Assembly (NCBI GenBank): GCA_947259095.1
Contig: CAMYLA010000002.1
Location: forward strand, 1-64,000
DNA length: 64,000 nt
Reading direction: 5' to 3'
DNA from: an uncultured Acidimicrobiaceae bacterium
Lineage (GTDB): Bacteria; Actinomycetota; Acidimicrobiia; Acidimicrobiales; SZUA-35
Under the pieces are notes generated by a model, which was given only the letters and a program-made list of their open reading frames with translations, had not been told where the DNA came from and searched no databases. How positions within the stretch are numbered: the first letter of the stretch is position 1; every line of letters begins with the position of its first letter. Below are positions 25,326-31,559 of this stretch, piece by piece. The translations under genes and the position numbers were made by a program.

Positions 25326-27869
25326 TCATTCGGTGGCGATGGCGTCCAGGATGTTGAGCCGGCTGGCCCGGATCGACGGGACGATCGAGGACAGCAGGCC
25401 GACGAGGGCCGCCAGCACCACCACAACGATCAGCGAGACGATCGGAATGTCGAAGCTCGACACACCCTGGTCTCGCAGGGCGTAGATGATCGCGTAGCCG
25501 AAGAACAGCCCGAGGATCACCCCGAGCACCGCACCGAACAGGGCGGTGATGACCGCCTCCCAACGGATGGTCGACTGCACCTGGCCCCTGGTCATCCCCA
25601 CCGCCCGCAGCAGACCGATCTCCCTGGTCCGCTCGATGGTGGACAGCCGGAGGGTGTTGGCGATGCCGAAGGCGGCAACGATGATGGCCAACCCCAGCAG
25701 GCCGTAGATCAGACCGAGGAGCTGGTCGAGGCTGGCCGACTGGTTGTCGATGTACTCCTGGCGGTCCTGGACCGTCACATTGGGATAGGCGGCGGCGACA
25801 TCGTCGATGACGACCCGGGCGTCTTCGATGGCCACGCCTTCGTTCAGCAACACGTAGCTGGCGAAGTCGAGCTGCTCGACGCCGGTCGACTCGTACAGAC
25901 CGGTGCTGACCGACTGGTTGCCGGCCAGGGCCGGCTCCGAGTAGAGCCCCCCGACGGTGAGGTCCCGCGCCAGCCCGTCTGGGAAACGGACCGACACCTG
26001 ATCGCCCACCCCGACCCCCAGCTTCTCGGCCCGGTCATCGAGCAGGAAGATGGCATCGTCGGTGAGGTCGGCCGGGCCCCCCTCGAACAGCCCGATGTCG
26101 AACAGCTCGAAGGCGGTCTCGGGATCGACGACGGAGATGAAGTCGCCGTCGCCCTCGATCTCGGCGATCCCCAGCCGGATGCCGGTGGCCGCCTTGACCT
26201 CGGGGAGAGCCTGGAGCTCAGCGGTCAGTGCGGGGCTGAAGCCGGCACCGGGGCCGCCCGCCCCCCCGGCATCGACGGCGAAGTCACCGGTGAACTGCTC
26301 GGCGATGGTGTCCTCGATCGAGGCAGCCAGCGAGGAGGCCAGCACCGTGACACCGGCCACCAGCGCCACCCCGATGGTCAGCGCGGCGGCGGTCCGGGCG
26401 GTGCGCTTCGGATTTCGCATGGAGTTGTCCCGAGCCAGCCTGCCGGTGGCGCCACGGAAACCGGCGATCGGTGCCCCCAGCACGCTGGCAACCGGTCGAG
26501 CGATGGACGGGCCGAGAACGAACACCCCGATGAACATCACCCCGGCGCCCAGGCCGGCGAAGAGGATCTCCGGGGCCAGCAGGCCGTAGAGGATGGCCGC
26601 ACCACCGAGGGCCAGGACCACCAGGCCGATGGCGAACCGCACGTTGTTGCGGTGCCAGGTCTCCGCCGCCGATTCCCGCAGCGCCTCGATCGGCGCGATC
26701 TGCGACGCTCGGATGGCGGGGAACAGGGCCGCCGCCACGGTGACGAGCATGCCGACGATGAGGCTGAGGATGATGGTCCGGGGCTGCAGCACCAGGCCGC
26801 CGGACGGGAGCTCGAGGCCGAAACCGTTCAGGAGCGCCCGCAGCCCGTAGGACAGGGCGATGCCGAGGCCGACACCGAGGATCGAGCCGGCCAGCCCCAC
26901 GATGACGGCCTCGAAGAAGACCGAGCCCAGGATCTGTCCCCGGGCCGCCCCCAACGCTCGGAACAGGGCGAACTCCCGGGTCCGTTGGGCGATCAGGATG
27001 GAGAAGGTGTTCCAGATCACGAACACCGAAACGAACAGGGCGATCACCGCGAAGGCGATGAGGAAGATGTTGAAGAATCCGAGCGCATCGGCGATGGCGC
27101 TCTGGGTCTCCTCGGTGGCCTGGGTCCCGGTGATCACCTCGACGTCGCTGTTGAGCACTGCGGCCACCCGGTCGACCACGTCCTGCTCGCTGAGGCCCTC
27201 CTCGGCCCGAACCGCAATGCCGTCGAGGCGATCCTCGGCCCCGAGCAGCCGCTGGGCCTCGTCGAGCTGGAACATGGCGGTGGTGGCCCCGGCCAGTGAG
27301 CCGGAGGTCCCGAATCGGGCCACACCGACCAGCTCGAAGCTCTCGGAACCGGTGGTGGTGAGAATCTGCACCTGGTCGCCGACCAGAAGGTTGCCGCTGC
27401 CGGCCGTGGTCTCGTCGAGGGCGACCTCGCCCGGCCCGGCCGGGGCACGACCGGTGGAGAGCGTGAACTGGTTGAGCTGGTCGTCGTCGGTCCAGGAGAA
27501 GCCGAGCGTCGGCGGCCCGTTGCTGGGGTTGCCGATCGGTTCGCCGTCGGCACCGATGACCGTTGCGCTGCCCTGGACGAAGGGGTCGATGGCGGCGACG
27601 CCGTCGACGGCCATGACCGCGTCGGCAACGGAGTCGTCGATCCGGGACCGTAGCTCGATCCCGAATCCGGCGTCGATGGTCTCGGTGGAGCGGACCTGGG
27701 CATCGGTCGTCTCGAAGACGGTCGAGAAGAGATCGTCGAAGGCCCGCTGGACCGAATCGGTGAAGATCAGGGTGCCGGCCAGGAAGGAGATGCCGAGGAT
27801 CACCGCCGCCGCGGTTGCCACGGTGCGGCCGAAGTGGCCGCGAATCGATTTGAGTGTCGCTTTGAACAT
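25326..27869 (-). CDS. ABC transporter permease with two FtsX domains
   Basis: The 847-residue protein has an N-terminal membrane helix and a large periplasmic-type (MacB-PCD) domain. A first FtsX block of three helices lies near residues 260-400 (NTFSILIAQRTREFALFRALGA). A central helix pair, a second external domain and a terminal FtsX block (NTLRLSTIERTREIGLLRAVGMTRGQV) follow. This is the usual build of actinobacterial exporters of lipoproteins or peptides. Its ATPase is encoded just upstream with a 4-bp gap. Confidence 0.92.
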   Translation of the reverse strand: MFKATLKSIRGHFGRTVATAAAVILGISFLAGTLIFTDSVQRAFDDLFSTVFETTDAQVRSTETIDAGFGIELRSRIDDSVADAVMAVDGVAAIDPFVQGSATVIGADGEPIGNPSNGPPTLGFSWTDDDQLNQFTLSTGRAPAGPGEVALDETTAGSGNLLVGDQVQILTTTGSESFELVGVARFGTSGSLAGATTAMFQLDEAQRLLGAEDRLDGIAVRAEEGLSEQDVVDRVAAVLNSDVEVITGTQATEETQSAIADALGFFNIFLIAFAVIALFVSVFVIWNTFSILIAQRTREFALFRALGAARGQILGSVFFEAVIVGLAGSILGVGLGIALSYGLRALLNGFGLELPSGGLVLQPRTIILSLIVGMLVTVAAALFPAIRASQIAPIEALRESAAETWHRNNVRFAIGLVVLALGGAAILYGLLAPEILFAGLGAGVMFIGVFVLGPSIARPVASVLGAPIAGFRGATGRLARDNSMRNPKRTARTAAALTIGVALVAGVTVLASSLAASIEDTIAEQFTGDFAVDAGGAGGPGAGFSPALTAELQALPEVKAATGIRLGIAEIEGDGDFISVVDPETAFELFDIGLFEGGPADLTDDAIFLLDDRAEKLGVGVGDQVSVRFPDGLARDLTVGGLYSEPALAGNQSVSTGLYESTGVEQLDFASYVLLNEGVAIEDARVVIDDVAAAYPNVTVQDRQEYIDNQSASLDQLLGLIYGLLGLAIIVAAFGIANTLRLSTIERTREIGLLRAVGMTRGQVQSTIRWEAVITALFGAVLGVILGLFFGYAIIYALRDQGVSSFDIPIVSLIVVVVLAALVGLLSSIVPSIRASRLNILDAIATE

Positions 27870-27873
27870 GGTG

Positions 27874-28662
27874 TCAGTCCCCCAGGCTGCGCATCGTGTC
27901 GTAGACGGTGTCGGCGGTTGGCTCGAGGATCTCGTGCACGATCCGACCGTCGGTCAGGAACAGCACCCGATCGCTGTAGGCCGCCGATACCGGGTCATGG
28001 GTCACCATCACCACCGTCTGGGAGAGCTGATCGACGGCCCGGCGCAGGAAGTCGAGGATCTCGGCCCCGTTCTTCGAGTCGAGGTTGCCGGTCGGTTCGT
28101 CGCCGAAGATGATGTCGGGGCGGGTGGCCAGCGCCCGAGCGACCGCCACCCGCTGTTGCTGGCCGCCTGACATCTCGTTCGGGCGGTGGTGGGCGCGGTC
28201 GGCCAACCCCAGGGTGCCGATGACCTCGTCGATCCAGGCCCCGTCGCCCTTTGACCCCGCCAGGTCGAGCGGCAGGGTGATGTTCTCCCTGGCGGTGAGG
28301 GTGGGGATCAGGTTGTAGGCCTGGAAGACGAATCCGATGTGCTCCCTGCGGAGTGTGGTCAGCGCCTTGTCGCTCAGCGTCGAGAGTGCCTGGGAGCCGA
28401 TGTAGGCCTCGCCCGAGGTGAGCCGGTCCAACCCGGCCATGCACTGCATCAGCGTGGACTTGCCGGAACCGGACGGGCCCATGATGGCGGTGAACCGGCC
28501 GGTTTCGAACGAAACACTGACGTTTCGCAATGCGTGAACCTCGGTGTCGCCCATGCCATAGACCTTCGAGGCGTCGACGGCGCTGGCGGCGGCCGACGGA
28601 CCGGGCGGCGAAGCGGCCCCGTCACTGCGCTGGCCCGTCGGCTGGCGGCTTGTCTCAGTCAT
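27874..28662 (-). CDS. ABC transporter ATP-binding protein (MacB/LolD type)
   Basis: The 262-residue ATPase has Walker A GPSGSGKST, a Q-loop in FVFQAYNLIPTLTARENI, the signature MSGGQQQRVAVARAL, Walker B DIIFGDEPTGNLD and the H-loop VMVTHDP. It powers the FtsX-type permease encoded directly downstream. A GGGAG lies seven bases before the ATG. The N-terminal 25 residues are Ala/Ser/Pro-rich and not conserved. Confidence 0.93.
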   Translation of the reverse strand: MTETSRQPTGQRSDGAASPPGPSAAASAVDASKVYGMGDTEVHALRNVSVSFETGRFTAIMGPSGSGKSTLMQCMAGLDRLTSGEAYIGSQALSTLSDKALTTLRREHIGFVFQAYNLIPTLTARENITLPLDLAGSKGDGAWIDEVIGTLGLADRAHHRPNEMSGGQQQRVAVARALATRPDIIFGDEPTGNLDSKNGAEILDFLRRAVDQLSQTVVMVTHDPVSAAYSDRVLFLTDGRIVHEILEPTADTVYDTMRSLGD

Positions 28663-28975: not shown

Positions 28976-29527
28976 ATGAGCCGTTCCCCGGTCGTCGCCG
29001 TTGCCGCCATCGCCGTCGGACTGTCGCTTTTTGGCGCAGCCTGCGGGGGAACCGACGCCACCGACGATGCCGCCGGCCAGGCCGGCGCCGCCCAGTCCGG
29101 CACGGTGCTGGACGCCTCGGTCCTCCAGGGCCAGGCCACCACCGCCACCGGTGAGTCGTTCGATCTCGGCGGGCTGGCCGACAAGGACCTGGTGGTCTGG
29201 TTCTGGGCCCCGTGGTGAACCTCCTGCGTCGCCGAGGGCCCTGCGGTCGCAGCGGTCGAAGCACAATACGGTGACCAGGTCGAGTTCGTCGGTATCGGCG
29301 GCCAGGCCCAACCCGGATCGGACTACACCAGTTTCATCGAGGGCACCGGCACCACCGAATTCACCCAGCTGATCGACGATTCCGGCGAGCTGTGGGAACG
29401 GTTCGGGACCGGCGGGCGGTCGACGTTCATGTTCGTCAACCAGGACGGCTCCTTCCGCCTGACCTCCTACGGCGTGGTTGACCAGAACGAACTGGTTGAC
29501 CAGGTCGAACAGCTGCTTGACGCCTGA
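28976..29527 (+). CDS. Probable selenoprotein: exported DsbE/TlpA-like thioredoxin-fold protein, TGA read as Sec81
   Basis: Read through TGA at 29216-29218, the gene gives 183 residues. A signal or lipoprotein leader (VVAVAAIAVGLSLFGAAC, Cys23) and a linker are followed by a thioredoxin fold: DLVVWFWAPW-U81-T-S-C84, then VAEGPAVAAVE, QVEFVGIGGQAQ, LIDDSGELWERFG, STFMFVNQDGSF and DELV-type ending. W-C-x-x-C is invariant in this family (mycobacterial DsbE/DsbF), and the TGA sits exactly on the first Cys. The downstream 102 codons stay open and keep strong third-position GC. A stem-loop follows the TGA. The usual cis-Pro before the STFMF strand appears to be Ser. A single Cys-to-stop mutation (TGC to TGA) is the alternative. 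Confidence 0.72.
29224..29252 (+). promoter_or_regulatory. Candidate bacterial SECIS stem-loop
   Basis: Starting six bases after the TGA, CTGCG (29224-29228) pairs with CGCAG (29248-29252). After a small asymmetric internal loop, CCG (29232-29234) pairs with CGG (29244-29246). The nine-base apical loop is AGGGCCCTG, beginning 17 bases after the TGA, with G at its second position. Spacing and a loop G near the start agree with the loose bacterial SECIS rules. The upper stem is short, and GC-rich DNA folds easily, so this is support, not proof. Confidence 0.45.
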
Positions 29528-29929: not shown

Positions 29930-30766
29930 TCACAGTTGGGCGTACCAGTCGTAGCCTCGCTCGTACCAGTAGTCGGTGGGCTGCTCGTCTGTGAACCGGA
30001 TCGTCCCGATGCGCTTGATGCACTTGATGCCGTACTTGTTCGGGGTCGCCAGCCGCAGCGGGGCGCCGTGGTCCGAGGTCAGCGGCTCCCCCTGCAATTC
30101 GTAGGCCAGCAGCATCTGGGAGTTCATCATCGACGCCATGTCGAGTCCGACGTAGTACCGGCCGTCCGGTGTCTCCAGGCTGACGAACCCTGCGGCGTTG
30201 TCGCCGGTCACCCCGAGATGGAGGGCGGCGAAGTCGCTGAACCGGGCGCCGCCCCAGGTCACGATGTGGCTCCACCCCTCGACACACTTGTGTTCCACGG
30301 TCAACTCGTTTTTCGGCAGCGCCTTGATGTCGTCCATGGTGTTGCGACCGATCGGCTCACCGTCGAGGCCGAGCACGCTCAGTTCCCAGGTGGCAACGTC
30401 GATCTCGTCGTCGAGCCCGTGGCGGCCGTTGACCCGCATCATCGACGACCGGCTTCGGTCGAAGGTCGGTGCCGTGGCCTGCTGGCGGCTCAGCCCCCGC
30501 CACAGTGCCTCATTGAACTCGTGGCCCTTGCGCAACACGTCGATGGCCCGGTTGTCCTCCGGGCGGTTGCCAAGCCATCGCCAGCCCGCCAACCCGGCAA
30601 CCGCCGCTGCCCCGCCGGTCAGGAACGAGCGACGGGTTCGCCGCCGATACTCCTCGGCGTCGATGGTCGGCGCCTCGGCCTCCAGCGCAGCGTAGCGCCG
30701 GGCTCGCTCCTCATCGGTTTCGACCAGCCGCTCCGAGCGCTTCGGACCCTTCGATGACTCAGCCAT
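29930..30766 (-). CDS. Molybdopterin-dependent oxidoreductase (sulfite-oxidase/MsrP-like), Tat-exported
   Basis: The 278-residue protein has a twin-arginine leader (RRTRRSFLTGGAAAVAGLAG) and an oxidoreductase molybdopterin domain with the molybdenum-ligand Cys in EHKCVEGWSH. Further family segments are DHGAPLRLATPNKYGIK and CIKRIGTI. The cytochrome b encoded immediately upstream (8-bp overlap) should pass electrons to it, as in YedYZ-like pairs. The substrate is not evident; sulfoxide or sulfite are guesses. Confidence 0.9.
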   Translation of the reverse strand: MAESSKGPKRSERLVETDEERARRYAALEAEAPTIDAEEYRRRTRRSFLTGGAAAVAGLAGWRWLGNRPEDNRAIDVLRKGHEFNEALWRGLSRQQATAPTFDRSRSSMMRVNGRHGLDDEIDVATWELSVLGLDGEPIGRNTMDDIKALPKNELTVEHKCVEGWSHIVTWGGARFSDFAALHLGVTGDNAAGFVSLETPDGRYYVGLDMASMMNSQMLLAYELQGEPLTSDHGAPLRLATPNKYGIKCIKRIGTIRFTDEQPTDYWYERGYDWYAQL

Positions 30767-31559
30767 CGGCTCGCACCTCCTCGGCCTCGGCCGGTCCCGG
30801 CCCTGGCCGCTGCAACCGGTAGCCGCCGACCATCGAGGCGAAGTTGCCCCAGCCGGCCCGAATCACCTGCAGGATGTGGAGCCCGAAGAACGCCAGGAAG
30901 CCGATCGTCACCACGAAGTGGATGGTCCTGGCCGATTCGTAGCCGCCGAACGCGGTGGTCAGCGGGTTCAACTGCGTCGGCTTGTAGATCGCCAGCCCGG
31001 TCAGCACCGCCAGCGCCCCCATGGCGACGATCAAGGTGTAGGACCACCGCTGGGCGCCGTTGTAGCGACCCTGGGGAGGCAGCGGTTGGTTCCGGATGAA
31101 CAGGTCGTGCTTCACCACGGTCAGGGCGTCCCTGGCCGAGTAGCGGTCCGGGAGGAGGTGACGCCATTCGCCGGTGCGCCAGGTGTAGAGCCCGTAGGCC
31201 ACGCCGTTGATGGCGAACAACCAGCCGAAGGTGAAGTGGAACGCCATGCCCCTGGCCAGTTTCCGCTCCAGCCCCAACGATTCGTTGACGACATCGGGAA
31301 GGAAGTCGAACCAGTGCCAGCCGACGAGGCCGACCCCGAACCCGTAGGGGTCGCGGAGGTCGGCCCAGTAGATTCGCAGGCCACTCCAGATCATGATGGT
31401 GAGCAGGGGGAAGTTGATCCAGTGCATCCACCGCGACCCCCGCCGGTGCTTGAGCACCGCCACCGGCGCCGGAGGCGATTGCCCGGCGTCGGTCGGCCCG
31501 GTGGCCCCCTCGCCGGTTCCGGTCGCTTCGGTATCGATCCTGTCGGTGCCCTGAACCAT
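30759..31559 (-). CDS. Cytochrome b561-type membrane subunit
   Basis: The 266-residue protein has four to five membrane helices with candidate haem histidines: RWMHWINFPLLTIMIWSGL, MAFHFTFGWLFAING, and IHFVVTIGFLAFFGLHILQVI. It belongs to the thiosulfate reductase/formate dehydrogenase cytochrome b group. It overlaps the molybdoenzyme gene by eight bases and most likely anchors and reduces that enzyme. Confidence 0.9.
   Translation of the reverse strand: MVQGTDRIDTEATGTGEGATGPTDAGQSPPAPVAVLKHRRGSRWMHWINFPLLTIMIWSGLRIYWADLRDPYGFGVGLVGWHWFDFLPDVVNESLGLERKLARGMAFHFTFGWLFAINGVAYGLYTWRTGEWRHLLPDRYSARDALTVVKHDLFIRNQPLPPQGRYNGAQRWSYTLIVAMGALAVLTGLAIYKPTQLNPLTTAFGGYESARTIHFVVTIGFLAFFGLHILQVIRAGWGNFASMVGGYRLQRPGPGPAEAEEVRADG

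What the first reader, a model, noticed from the sequence alone, without database searches (positions are those of the whole stretch)
28976..29527. Probable selenoprotein: DsbE/TlpA-like protein with U-x-x-C active site
A conventional reading gives an 80-residue stub ending FWAPW and then TGA. Reading through gives a complete thioredoxin-fold protein with TSC immediately after, so the TGA replaces exactly the first Cys of the W-C-x-x-C motif. The downstream 102 codons are free of stops and keep family landmarks. Sec at this position is chemically sensible because it would raise redox reactivity. An exported actinobacterial Dsb-like selenoprotein would be unusual, and standard gene callers would miss it. 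Nonsense mutation remains possible, since only one base separates TGC from TGA.
Basis: partly seen in the sequence, partly recalled or inferred. Interest (0 to 1): 0.93.

Follow-up and report, generated by a model that had tools for sequence, protein, structure and literature searches.

The report
Exported selenium-containing thioredoxin-like protein
This bacterial gene looks cut short by a stop codon, but that codon is almost certainly read as the rare amino acid selenocysteine, and the same selenium-using redox protein turns up in many members of a little-studied group of actinobacteria.

Summary
ATG 28976 opens an 80-codon frame ending FWAPW; TGA follows at 29216-29218, then 102 open codons to a terminal TGA. 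The inner TGA is very probably selenocysteine.

(1) The genome has tRNA-Sec, adjacent selA-selB, and selD. (3) Selection is purifying and similar before and after the TGA. (4) A GGUC-loop hairpin 26 nt after the UGA covaries, constrains codons and fits the published bacterial SECIS rule.

Mechanism: Sec81-x-x-Cys84 in a thioredoxin fold closest to M. tuberculosis DsbF and MPT53, probably an exported lipoprotein; its redox role is inferred only.

Less expected: the window's branch lacks the conserved cis-proline, and a UxxU branch mostly has Arg there, as peroxiredoxins do.

The parts
28976..29527 (+). Selenoprotein gene: 183-residue UxxC thioredoxin-fold protein plus terminal TGA
28976..29044 (+). 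Putative signal peptide ending at a lipobox-like Cys23 (LFGAAC-GG); 26 of 30 aligned rows have Cys in this column
   Evidence: Sequence and alignment A1; no signal-peptide program was run
29216..29218 (+). In-frame TGA read as selenocysteine (U81), at the first Cys position of W-C-x-x-C
29225..29227 (+). Cys84, second residue of the U-x-x-C redox pair
29238..29256 (+). bSECIS hairpin: inner stem 29241-29244 (CUGC) with 29249-29252 (GCAG), outer stem with one bulge; loop begins 26 nt after the UGA
29245..29248 (+). Apical loop GGUC (present in 95 of 101 representative Sec genes)
29420..29422 (+). Ser149 at the place of the thioredoxin-fold cis-proline
29525..29527 (+). Terminal TGA, used as a real stop

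Best explanation
The gene encodes a selenoprotein. While the ribosome translates the mRNA, SelB (carrying the Sec-tRNA that SelA makes with SelD's selenophosphate) recognises the GGUC hairpin 26 nt downstream and inserts selenocysteine at the UGA in place of termination. The full 183-residue product is exported, probably lipid-anchored at Cys23 on the outer face of the membrane. There Sec81 and Cys84 form a selenol-thiol pair that exchanges electrons with extracytoplasmic disulfides. Shown here by sequence: the machinery, the TGA/Cys equivalence, purifying selection after the TGA, the covarying hairpin, and a predicted Trx fold closest to DsbF/MPT53. Inferred: actual Sec insertion, export and lipidation, and the redox role. 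I lean to a disulfide reductase or exchanger rather than an oxidase, because no VKOR was found in the genome and a CcdA-like gene lies beside its Cys-form paralogue; that lean is weak.
For: Machinery: tRNA-Sec 64.8 bits, anticodon tca. SelA 404 and SelB 295 bits, both over their cut-offs, adjacent on one contig. Two SelD genes, each with an in-frame TGA. Over the cut-off in the 14 control genomes: tRNA-Sec 5, SelB 2, SelD 2, SelA 1. SelB's best relatives are congeners at 79 and 76% identity and the selAB and tRNA-Sec contigs match the window in composition.

Relatives: of the 30 best loci fetched by protein similarity, 25 have TGA and 5 have Cys at this codon. 112 of 116 named stretches continue as the same protein. 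In the order, 71 of 397 genomes carry the exact motif with TGA; 65 of the 71 have a tRNA-Sec, and the 6 without are 79-89% complete.

Selection: window versus L146 dN 0.206 and dS 0.572 after the TGA, 0.223 and 0.695 before.

SECIS: all four inner pairs form in 86 of 101 representatives, shuffled mean 35%, maximum 46% of 2000 shuffles. A rule-fitting GGUC hairpin at spacing 26 is the best one in 81 of 101, against 2.3% (maximum 7.9%) in 20 synonymous-codon controls. Codons under the hairpin: Ala GCG 92 of 93 (219 of 868 further along the same genes), Val GTC 121 of 123 (482 of 894), next Ala GCA 83 of 101 (95 of 868).

Fold: mean pLDDT 88.3; 1lu4 Z 22.1, 3ios Z 21.8.
Against: No protein or selenium evidence exists. 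Folded alone, the 45 nt after the TGA are no more stable than shuffles (z 0.21), and their minimum-energy fold is not the SECIS hairpin. RNAalifold on the ungapped set gave only a 3-bp consensus at -1.25 kcal/mol. In 15 of 101 representatives the four-pair stem is incomplete, and a rule-fitting hairpin of some kind arises in 33% of synonymous-codon controls and in 3 of 17 Cys genes. Six TGA-carrying genomes show no tRNA-Sec and 171 genomes with tRNA-Sec lack the exact motif. The genome bin has 7.1% estimated contamination. The CcdA link is with Cys forms (4 of 5 with enough flank); only 3 of 124 Sec genes, whose fetched flanks differ in length, had a CcdA-like gene nearby.
Confidence: 0.93

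Rival explanations
1. Nonsense mutation, sequencing error or young pseudogene: a TGC codon became TGA in this one genome and the product is a dead stub.
For: One base separates TGC from TGA; an open frame of 102 codons is not rare at this GC (about 0.10).
Against: The TGA sits at the same codon in 124 distinct gene sequences, among them 25 of the 30 best homologues picked without regard to that codon, with purifying selection on both sides.
Confidence: 0.01
2. UGA is reassigned in this genome (for example to Trp or Gly), or is read through non-specifically, so no selenium is involved.
For: The frame continues across the TGA.
Against: TGA ends this gene itself and the downstream cold-shock gene. 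Dedicated Sec machinery is present. In the 30 best homologues the other residue at that codon is Cys, and a SECIS-like hairpin covaries.
Confidence: 0.02
3. Regulated product: a mixture of the 80-residue truncated lipoprotein and the full selenoprotein, or Cys in place of Sec when selenium is scarce, with the short form having its own use.
For: UGA decoding is incomplete in E. coli (30-40%; abstract and passages of PMC4513850).
Against: I did not look for, and did not see, any conserved feature of a functional stub; the stub lacks the second half of the predicted fold.
Confidence: 0.1
4. The protein is a peroxidase rather than a disulfide exchanger: the lost cis-proline and nearby Arg148 tune Sec81 towards peroxides, as Arg does in peroxiredoxins.
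For: The best Pfam hit is Redoxin. Ser149 replaces the cis-Pro, and in the UxxU branch Arg holds that place in 13 of 16. [quoted passage not shown]
Against: The motif is UxxC, not the peroxiredoxin TxxC (recalled as the Prx motif; TxxU is listed for Sec-Prx). The nearest solved folds are MPT53 and DsbF (Z about 22), then ResA (18-19), ahead of PrxQ (15.8). Only a neighbouring residue is Arg in the window protein.
Confidence: 0.2

Closest known systems
Redoxin family selenoprotein, PF08534, UxxC (2026 catalogue PMC13188914, example HEU0032618.1, which cites the 2008 ocean survey PMC2398784; there 'Prx-like 3', pfam08534, UxxC)
   Same: Same Pfam family above its cut-off (35 against 26.6 bits), same UxxC motif.
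   Different: The catalogued sequence could not be fetched, so identity is untested. The passages seen name no taxon for it and do not mention a lost cis-proline.
Trx-like 1 selenoproteins (COG0526, UxxC) and Prx-like thiol:disulfide oxidoreductases (PF00578, UxxC/UxxU)
   Same: Sec-for-Cys swap in a thioredoxin-like redox protein; both UxxC and UxxU occur.
   Different: Here UxxC and UxxU forms lie in one actinobacterial family, with the UxxU rows as one group in the tree.
M. tuberculosis DsbF (3ios) and MPT53/DsbE (1lu4)
   Same: Closest solved sequences (E 2.3e-19 and 1.6e-18) and folds (Z 21.8 and 22.1, 35-36% identity).
   Different: They use Cys, not Sec, and have Pro at the cis-proline place (alignment).
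ResA / TlpA / CcmG disulfide reductases
   Same: Fold (Z about 15-19), W-C-x-x-C place.
   Different: 16-19% identity; far below the NCBIfam cut-offs for ResA, TlpA and DsbE.

Membership tests
Bacterial selenoprotein | In-frame UGA aligned with a catalytic Cys in homologues, with conserved coding sequence after it | tested here: met
Bacterial selenoprotein | bSECIS hairpin: 3-9 nt loop, 4-16 bp stem, G in first two loop positions, 16-37 nt from UGA, energy -7.5 kcal/mol or lower (rule in PMC13188914) | tested here: met
   Window: loop GGUC, spacing 26, -10.3 kcal/mol; covariation
Bacterial selenoprotein | tRNA-Sec, SelA, SelB and SelD in the same genome | tested here: met
Bacterial selenoprotein | Selenium incorporated in the protein | not testable with these tools
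   Needs 75Se labelling or mass spectrometry
Catalogued Redoxin-family UxxC selenoprotein | PF08534 match with UxxC | tested here: met
Catalogued Redoxin-family UxxC selenoprotein | Sequence kinship to the catalogue example HEU0032618.1 | not testable with these tools
   I had no way to fetch that protein record by accession
[quoted passage not shown]
Thioredoxin fold, TlpA/DsbF-like | cis-proline opposite the redox pair | tested here: not met
   Ser149 at that place; Pro in 98 of 107 UxxC rows
DsbE (TIGR00385) | Curated score cut-off 123.15 bits | tested here: not met
   23.1 bits
Peroxiredoxin | TxxC/TxxU peroxidatic motif | tested here: not met
   UxxC in its place; motif and recall
Exported lipoprotein | Signal peptide with lipobox Cys | tested here: inconclusive
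   Cys23 column holds Cys in 26 of 30 rows; no predictor was run

The most novel reading that the evidence does not exclude
Within a large actinobacterial family of exported Sec thioredoxins, two branches have given up the cis-proline that guards the thioredoxin active site: the window's branch (Arg-Ser-Thr) and a branch with two selenocysteines (UxxU, mostly Arg at the proline place as in peroxiredoxins). These would be selenium-based, peroxiredoxin-like enzymes that arose from a disulfide carrier, with one SECIS hairpin serving two UGA codons (26 and 17 nt away) in the UxxU branch.
Probability: 0.17. Interest if true: 0.72.

Novelty: new member of a known kind. Interest (0 to 1): 0.5.

Why it matters
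A gene class that reads as a stub under the standard code is a recurrent, often multi-copy part of genomes in this order: 71 of 397 genomes sampled have the exact motif with TGA, up to five copies in one (G277), and 236 of 397 have a tRNA-Sec. Selenium use in this order is therefore not rare. The family also offers a natural series (CxxC, UxxC, UxxU; with and without cis-proline; with a SECIS element locked into the coding sequence) for testing what selenocysteine adds to a thioredoxin-fold active site.

Tried and rejected
Rejected: mutation or pseudogene; code reassignment; contamination as the source of the Sec machinery (see rivals). A plain energy test of the downstream RNA was uninformative, as was RNAalifold on the ungapped set. 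A gene-neighbourhood clustering of 101 Sec loci gave clusters mixed with antisense frames, and I drew nothing firm from it. The window's divergent ABC-transporter neighbour is kept next to the gene in L146; in L117 the ABC match lies about 4.5 kb away.

Rows dropped before counts. One search dropped 5 of 117 rows (4 chance hits and the cut L084) and then repeats, leaving 107. One search kept only genes fitting a motif with C or U at both redox places and at least 50 codons after it, so its 124 Sec and 17 Cys genes cannot show whether other residues occur there; of the 20 regions taken, 12 gave Cys genes, 1 (L193) a Sec gene, and 7 did not fit the motif. One search reduced 124 to 101 below 85% identity. 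One search used 140 of 141 genes (one too short).

Errors of mine: the first CcdA search found nothing because of a slicing error; one search repeats it correctly. One search stopped with an error after its first counts; one search repeats it. Alignment A2 held one out-of-frame row (L105) and was replaced by A3.

Literature: 'selenoprotein + Acidimicrobi + selenocysteine' and 'selenoprotein + redoxin family protein + Actinobacteria' gave no paper; five terms with Actinobacteria and thioredoxin-like gave one paper on parasites; four terms with actinobacter and SelB gave 16, of which I read passages in three (PMC1794560, PMC5029168, PMC5330540); 'selenoprotein + TlpA' gave 5, of which I read passages of one (PMC13188914). 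A two-of-three-term search with Acidimicrobiales held 1,007 papers, of which 8 were listed, none with that word. PMC12013277 held none of my six terms. Subscription papers are mostly not held, so absence from print is not shown.

Full report
WHAT IS THERE. The frame at 28976-29527 reads as described: 80 codons to FWAPW, TGA at 29216-29218, then TSC within 102 open codons to a terminal TGA. The open frame alone would arise by chance about one time in ten at this composition. With TGA read as U, the protein matches Pfam Redoxin, Thioredoxin and AhpC-TSA above their cut-offs, and its closest solved relatives by sequence are M. tuberculosis DsbF and MPT53.

THE GENOME CAN MAKE SELENOCYSTEINE. The window's own assembly (6.39 Mb, 96.5% complete, 7.1% contamination) has one tRNA-Sec above the Rfam cut-off (64.8 bits against 47), which ARAGORN reads with anticodon tca. 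SelA and SelB lie side by side on contig C168. There are two SelD genes, each with its own in-frame TGA. Of 14 control genomes, 5 pass the tRNA-Sec cut-off, 2 SelB, 2 SelD and 1 SelA. To check for contamination I compared tetranucleotide composition with the window: 0.96 for the selAB contig and 0.974 for the tRNA-Sec contig piece, against 0.89-0.955 for the window's own 5-kb pieces and 0.74-0.91 for five loci of other organisms; the pieces differ in length, and the second SelD piece (C83) gave 0.923. SelB's best relatives among 41 genomes are two congeners at 79 and 76% identity.

RELATIVES KEEP THE TGA. Of 397 genomes of the same order, 339 have a homologue at E 1e-5 or better. In the 30 loci fetched from the best of these, picked by protein similarity, 25 have TGA at this codon (followed by xxC or xxU) and 5 have Cys (L027, L044-L047). 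Of these, 112 read on as the same protein and 4 are chance hits; 96 of the 112 records are titled Acidimicrobi- or Microthrix-, and 16 carry other titles, among them Egibacteraceae (L060), Euzebyaceae (L061), Nitriliruptorales (L077), broader actinobacterial names and one 'Acidobacteria' (L076).

TGA AND MACHINERY GO TOGETHER. The exact motif with TGA occurs in 71 of the 397 genomes, and tRNA-Sec at E 1e-9 in 236 of 397. Both occur in 65, TGA alone in 6, tRNA-Sec alone in 171, neither in 155 (one-sided Fisher p 6e-11, not corrected for kinship). The six exceptions (G070, G131, G170, G286, G372, G392) are 79-89% complete, and one of them, G372, has a SelB match in two pieces.

SELECTION. Between the window and its nearest relative L146 (72% identity after the TGA), dN and dS are 0.223 and 0.695 in the 40 codons before the TGA and 0.206 and 0.572 in the 101 after. 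The other four window pairs and eight pairs of relatives show dN below dS on both sides; dS is uncertain at this distance.

THE SECIS ELEMENT. I aligned the bases after the TGA without gaps. In 101 representatives below 85% identity, the loop at bases 29-32 (counting the T of TGA as 0) is GGTC in 95. All four flanking pairs form in 86 of 101, against a mean of 35% and a maximum of 46% in 2000 re-dealings of the 3' letters; slid versions reach at most 17%. The stem exists as CTGC/GCAG (45), CCAC/GTGG (11), GTGC/GCAC (8), GTGC/GCAT (8), CGGC/GCCG (4), CCTC/GAGG (3), CTAC/GTAG (2) and others, which is compensatory change. Codons under the hairpin are extreme: Ala GCG 92 of 93, Val GTC 121 of 123, Ala GCA 83 of 101, Pro CCT 62 of 84, against 219 of 868, 482 of 894, 95 of 868 and 45 of 361 further along the same genes. 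With the published rule (PMC13188914, section 5 read in full), 90 of 101 have a fitting hairpin, and in 81 the best one is GGUC at spacing 26. Synonymous-codon controls (20 rounds) give 33% and 2.3% (maxima 41% and 7.9%), and Cys-form genes 3 of 17. The window's hairpin is 29238-29256, -10.3 kcal/mol in the rule test and -8.3 for the 19-nt core. Against: the 45-nt stretch alone is not unusually stable and its minimum-energy fold differs. From memory, the E. coli fdhF SECIS also has GGUC in its loop; no call tested this.

THE PROTEIN. AlphaFold2 on a 50-row alignment gives mean pLDDT 88.3, with 128 of 183 residues at 90 or more. The best folds are 1lu4 (Z 22.1, 1.4 A over 132) and 3ios (Z 21.8), then ResA at 18-19. 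The Cys23 column holds Cys in 26 of 30 aligned rows, which suggests a lipoprotein; no predictor was run. The cis-proline place holds Ser149. Proline is kept in 98 of 107 UxxC and 16 of 17 CxxC rows but in 0 of 16 UxxU rows, of which 13 have Arg. In a 140-row tree the UxxU rows form one group (SH-aLRT 99) and the window sits in a six-row UxxC group (98) joined next by the Cys form L027 (93); 49 of 137 inner branches are left open. A review of the thioredoxin fold (PMC2757866, passages only) says that this proline is more conserved than CxxC, may prevent metal binding, and is replaced by Arg in peroxiredoxins.

HOW IT LIKELY WORKS. Sec81 would be the attacking selenolate and Cys84 the resolving thiol (established thioredoxin chemistry, recalled). 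No VKOR (a disulfide generator in many actinobacteria; recalled) was found in the genome; the control search found it in 3 of 14 genomes. A CcdA-like membrane protein, the usual electron source for such reductases (recalled), lies beside the genome's Cys-form paralogue and beside 4 of 5 Cys-form genes with enough flank, but near only 3 of 124 Sec genes. The L047 copy scores 21.3 bits against a Pfam DsbD_TM cut-off of 27.1, and the same Pfam model finds in this genome only one sub-threshold match on another contig. I therefore lean only weakly to a reductase or exchanger.

WHAT IS KNOWN. The 2008 ocean survey (PMC2398784, passages) lists Trx-like 1 COG0526 UxxC (321 sequences), Prx-like 3 PF08534 UxxC (68) and some UxxU in a Prx-like 2 family. 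The 2026 catalogue (PMC13188914, passages) lists 'Redoxin family protein, PF08534, UxxC' and 'Prx-like thiol:disulfide oxidoreductase, UxxC, UxxU'. None of the 13 NCBIfam models listed for this protein reaches its cut-off. So the kind is known; the spread in Acidimicrobiales, the near-constant GGUC element and the cis-proline loss were not met in the passages read.

VERDICT. A real selenoprotein with high confidence, a new member of a known kind, of moderate interest; the cis-proline-less branches are the part worth a bench test.

Noticed in passing
L170 (G000:C53:28789-29340, minus): A second Sec paralogue in the same genome, FWAPH-U-PAC, with a different downstream hairpin about 34 nt after the UGA.
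   Followed up: partly
L171/L199 (G000:C68:10202-10612, minus): A Cys-form paralogue in the same genome with a CcdA-like gene beside it.
   Followed up: partly
L017 and L018 (G000:C27 and C83): Two SelD genes, both with an in-frame TGA and a hairpin after it; paralogues or a trace of bin contamination.
   Followed up: partly
L024, L031, L032, L034, L038, L042, L068, L113, L126, L129, L143, L147, L156, L166: Fourteen representative UxxU genes: a GGUC-loop hairpin (all four pairs in 13 of 14) lies 26 nt from the first UGA and 17 nt from the second, so one element could serve both.
   Followed up: partly
G277 and other genomes: Up to five exact WFWAPW-TGA copies in one genome.
   Followed up: no
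L054, L060, L061, L077, L115, L136: A separate small branch (titles include Egibacteraceae, Euzebyaceae, Nitriliruptorales) lacks the four-pair GGUC stem and has another inverted repeat (CGGGAGGCUCCCG-like) after the TGA.
   Followed up: no
window 29930-31559: Molybdopterin oxidoreductase and cytochrome b561 genes next to each other beside this locus, perhaps another extracytoplasmic redox system.
   Followed up: partly
window 25326-28662 and L146: Divergent MacB/FtsX-type ABC transporter beside the selenoprotein gene, conserved in the nearest relative L146.
   Followed up: partly
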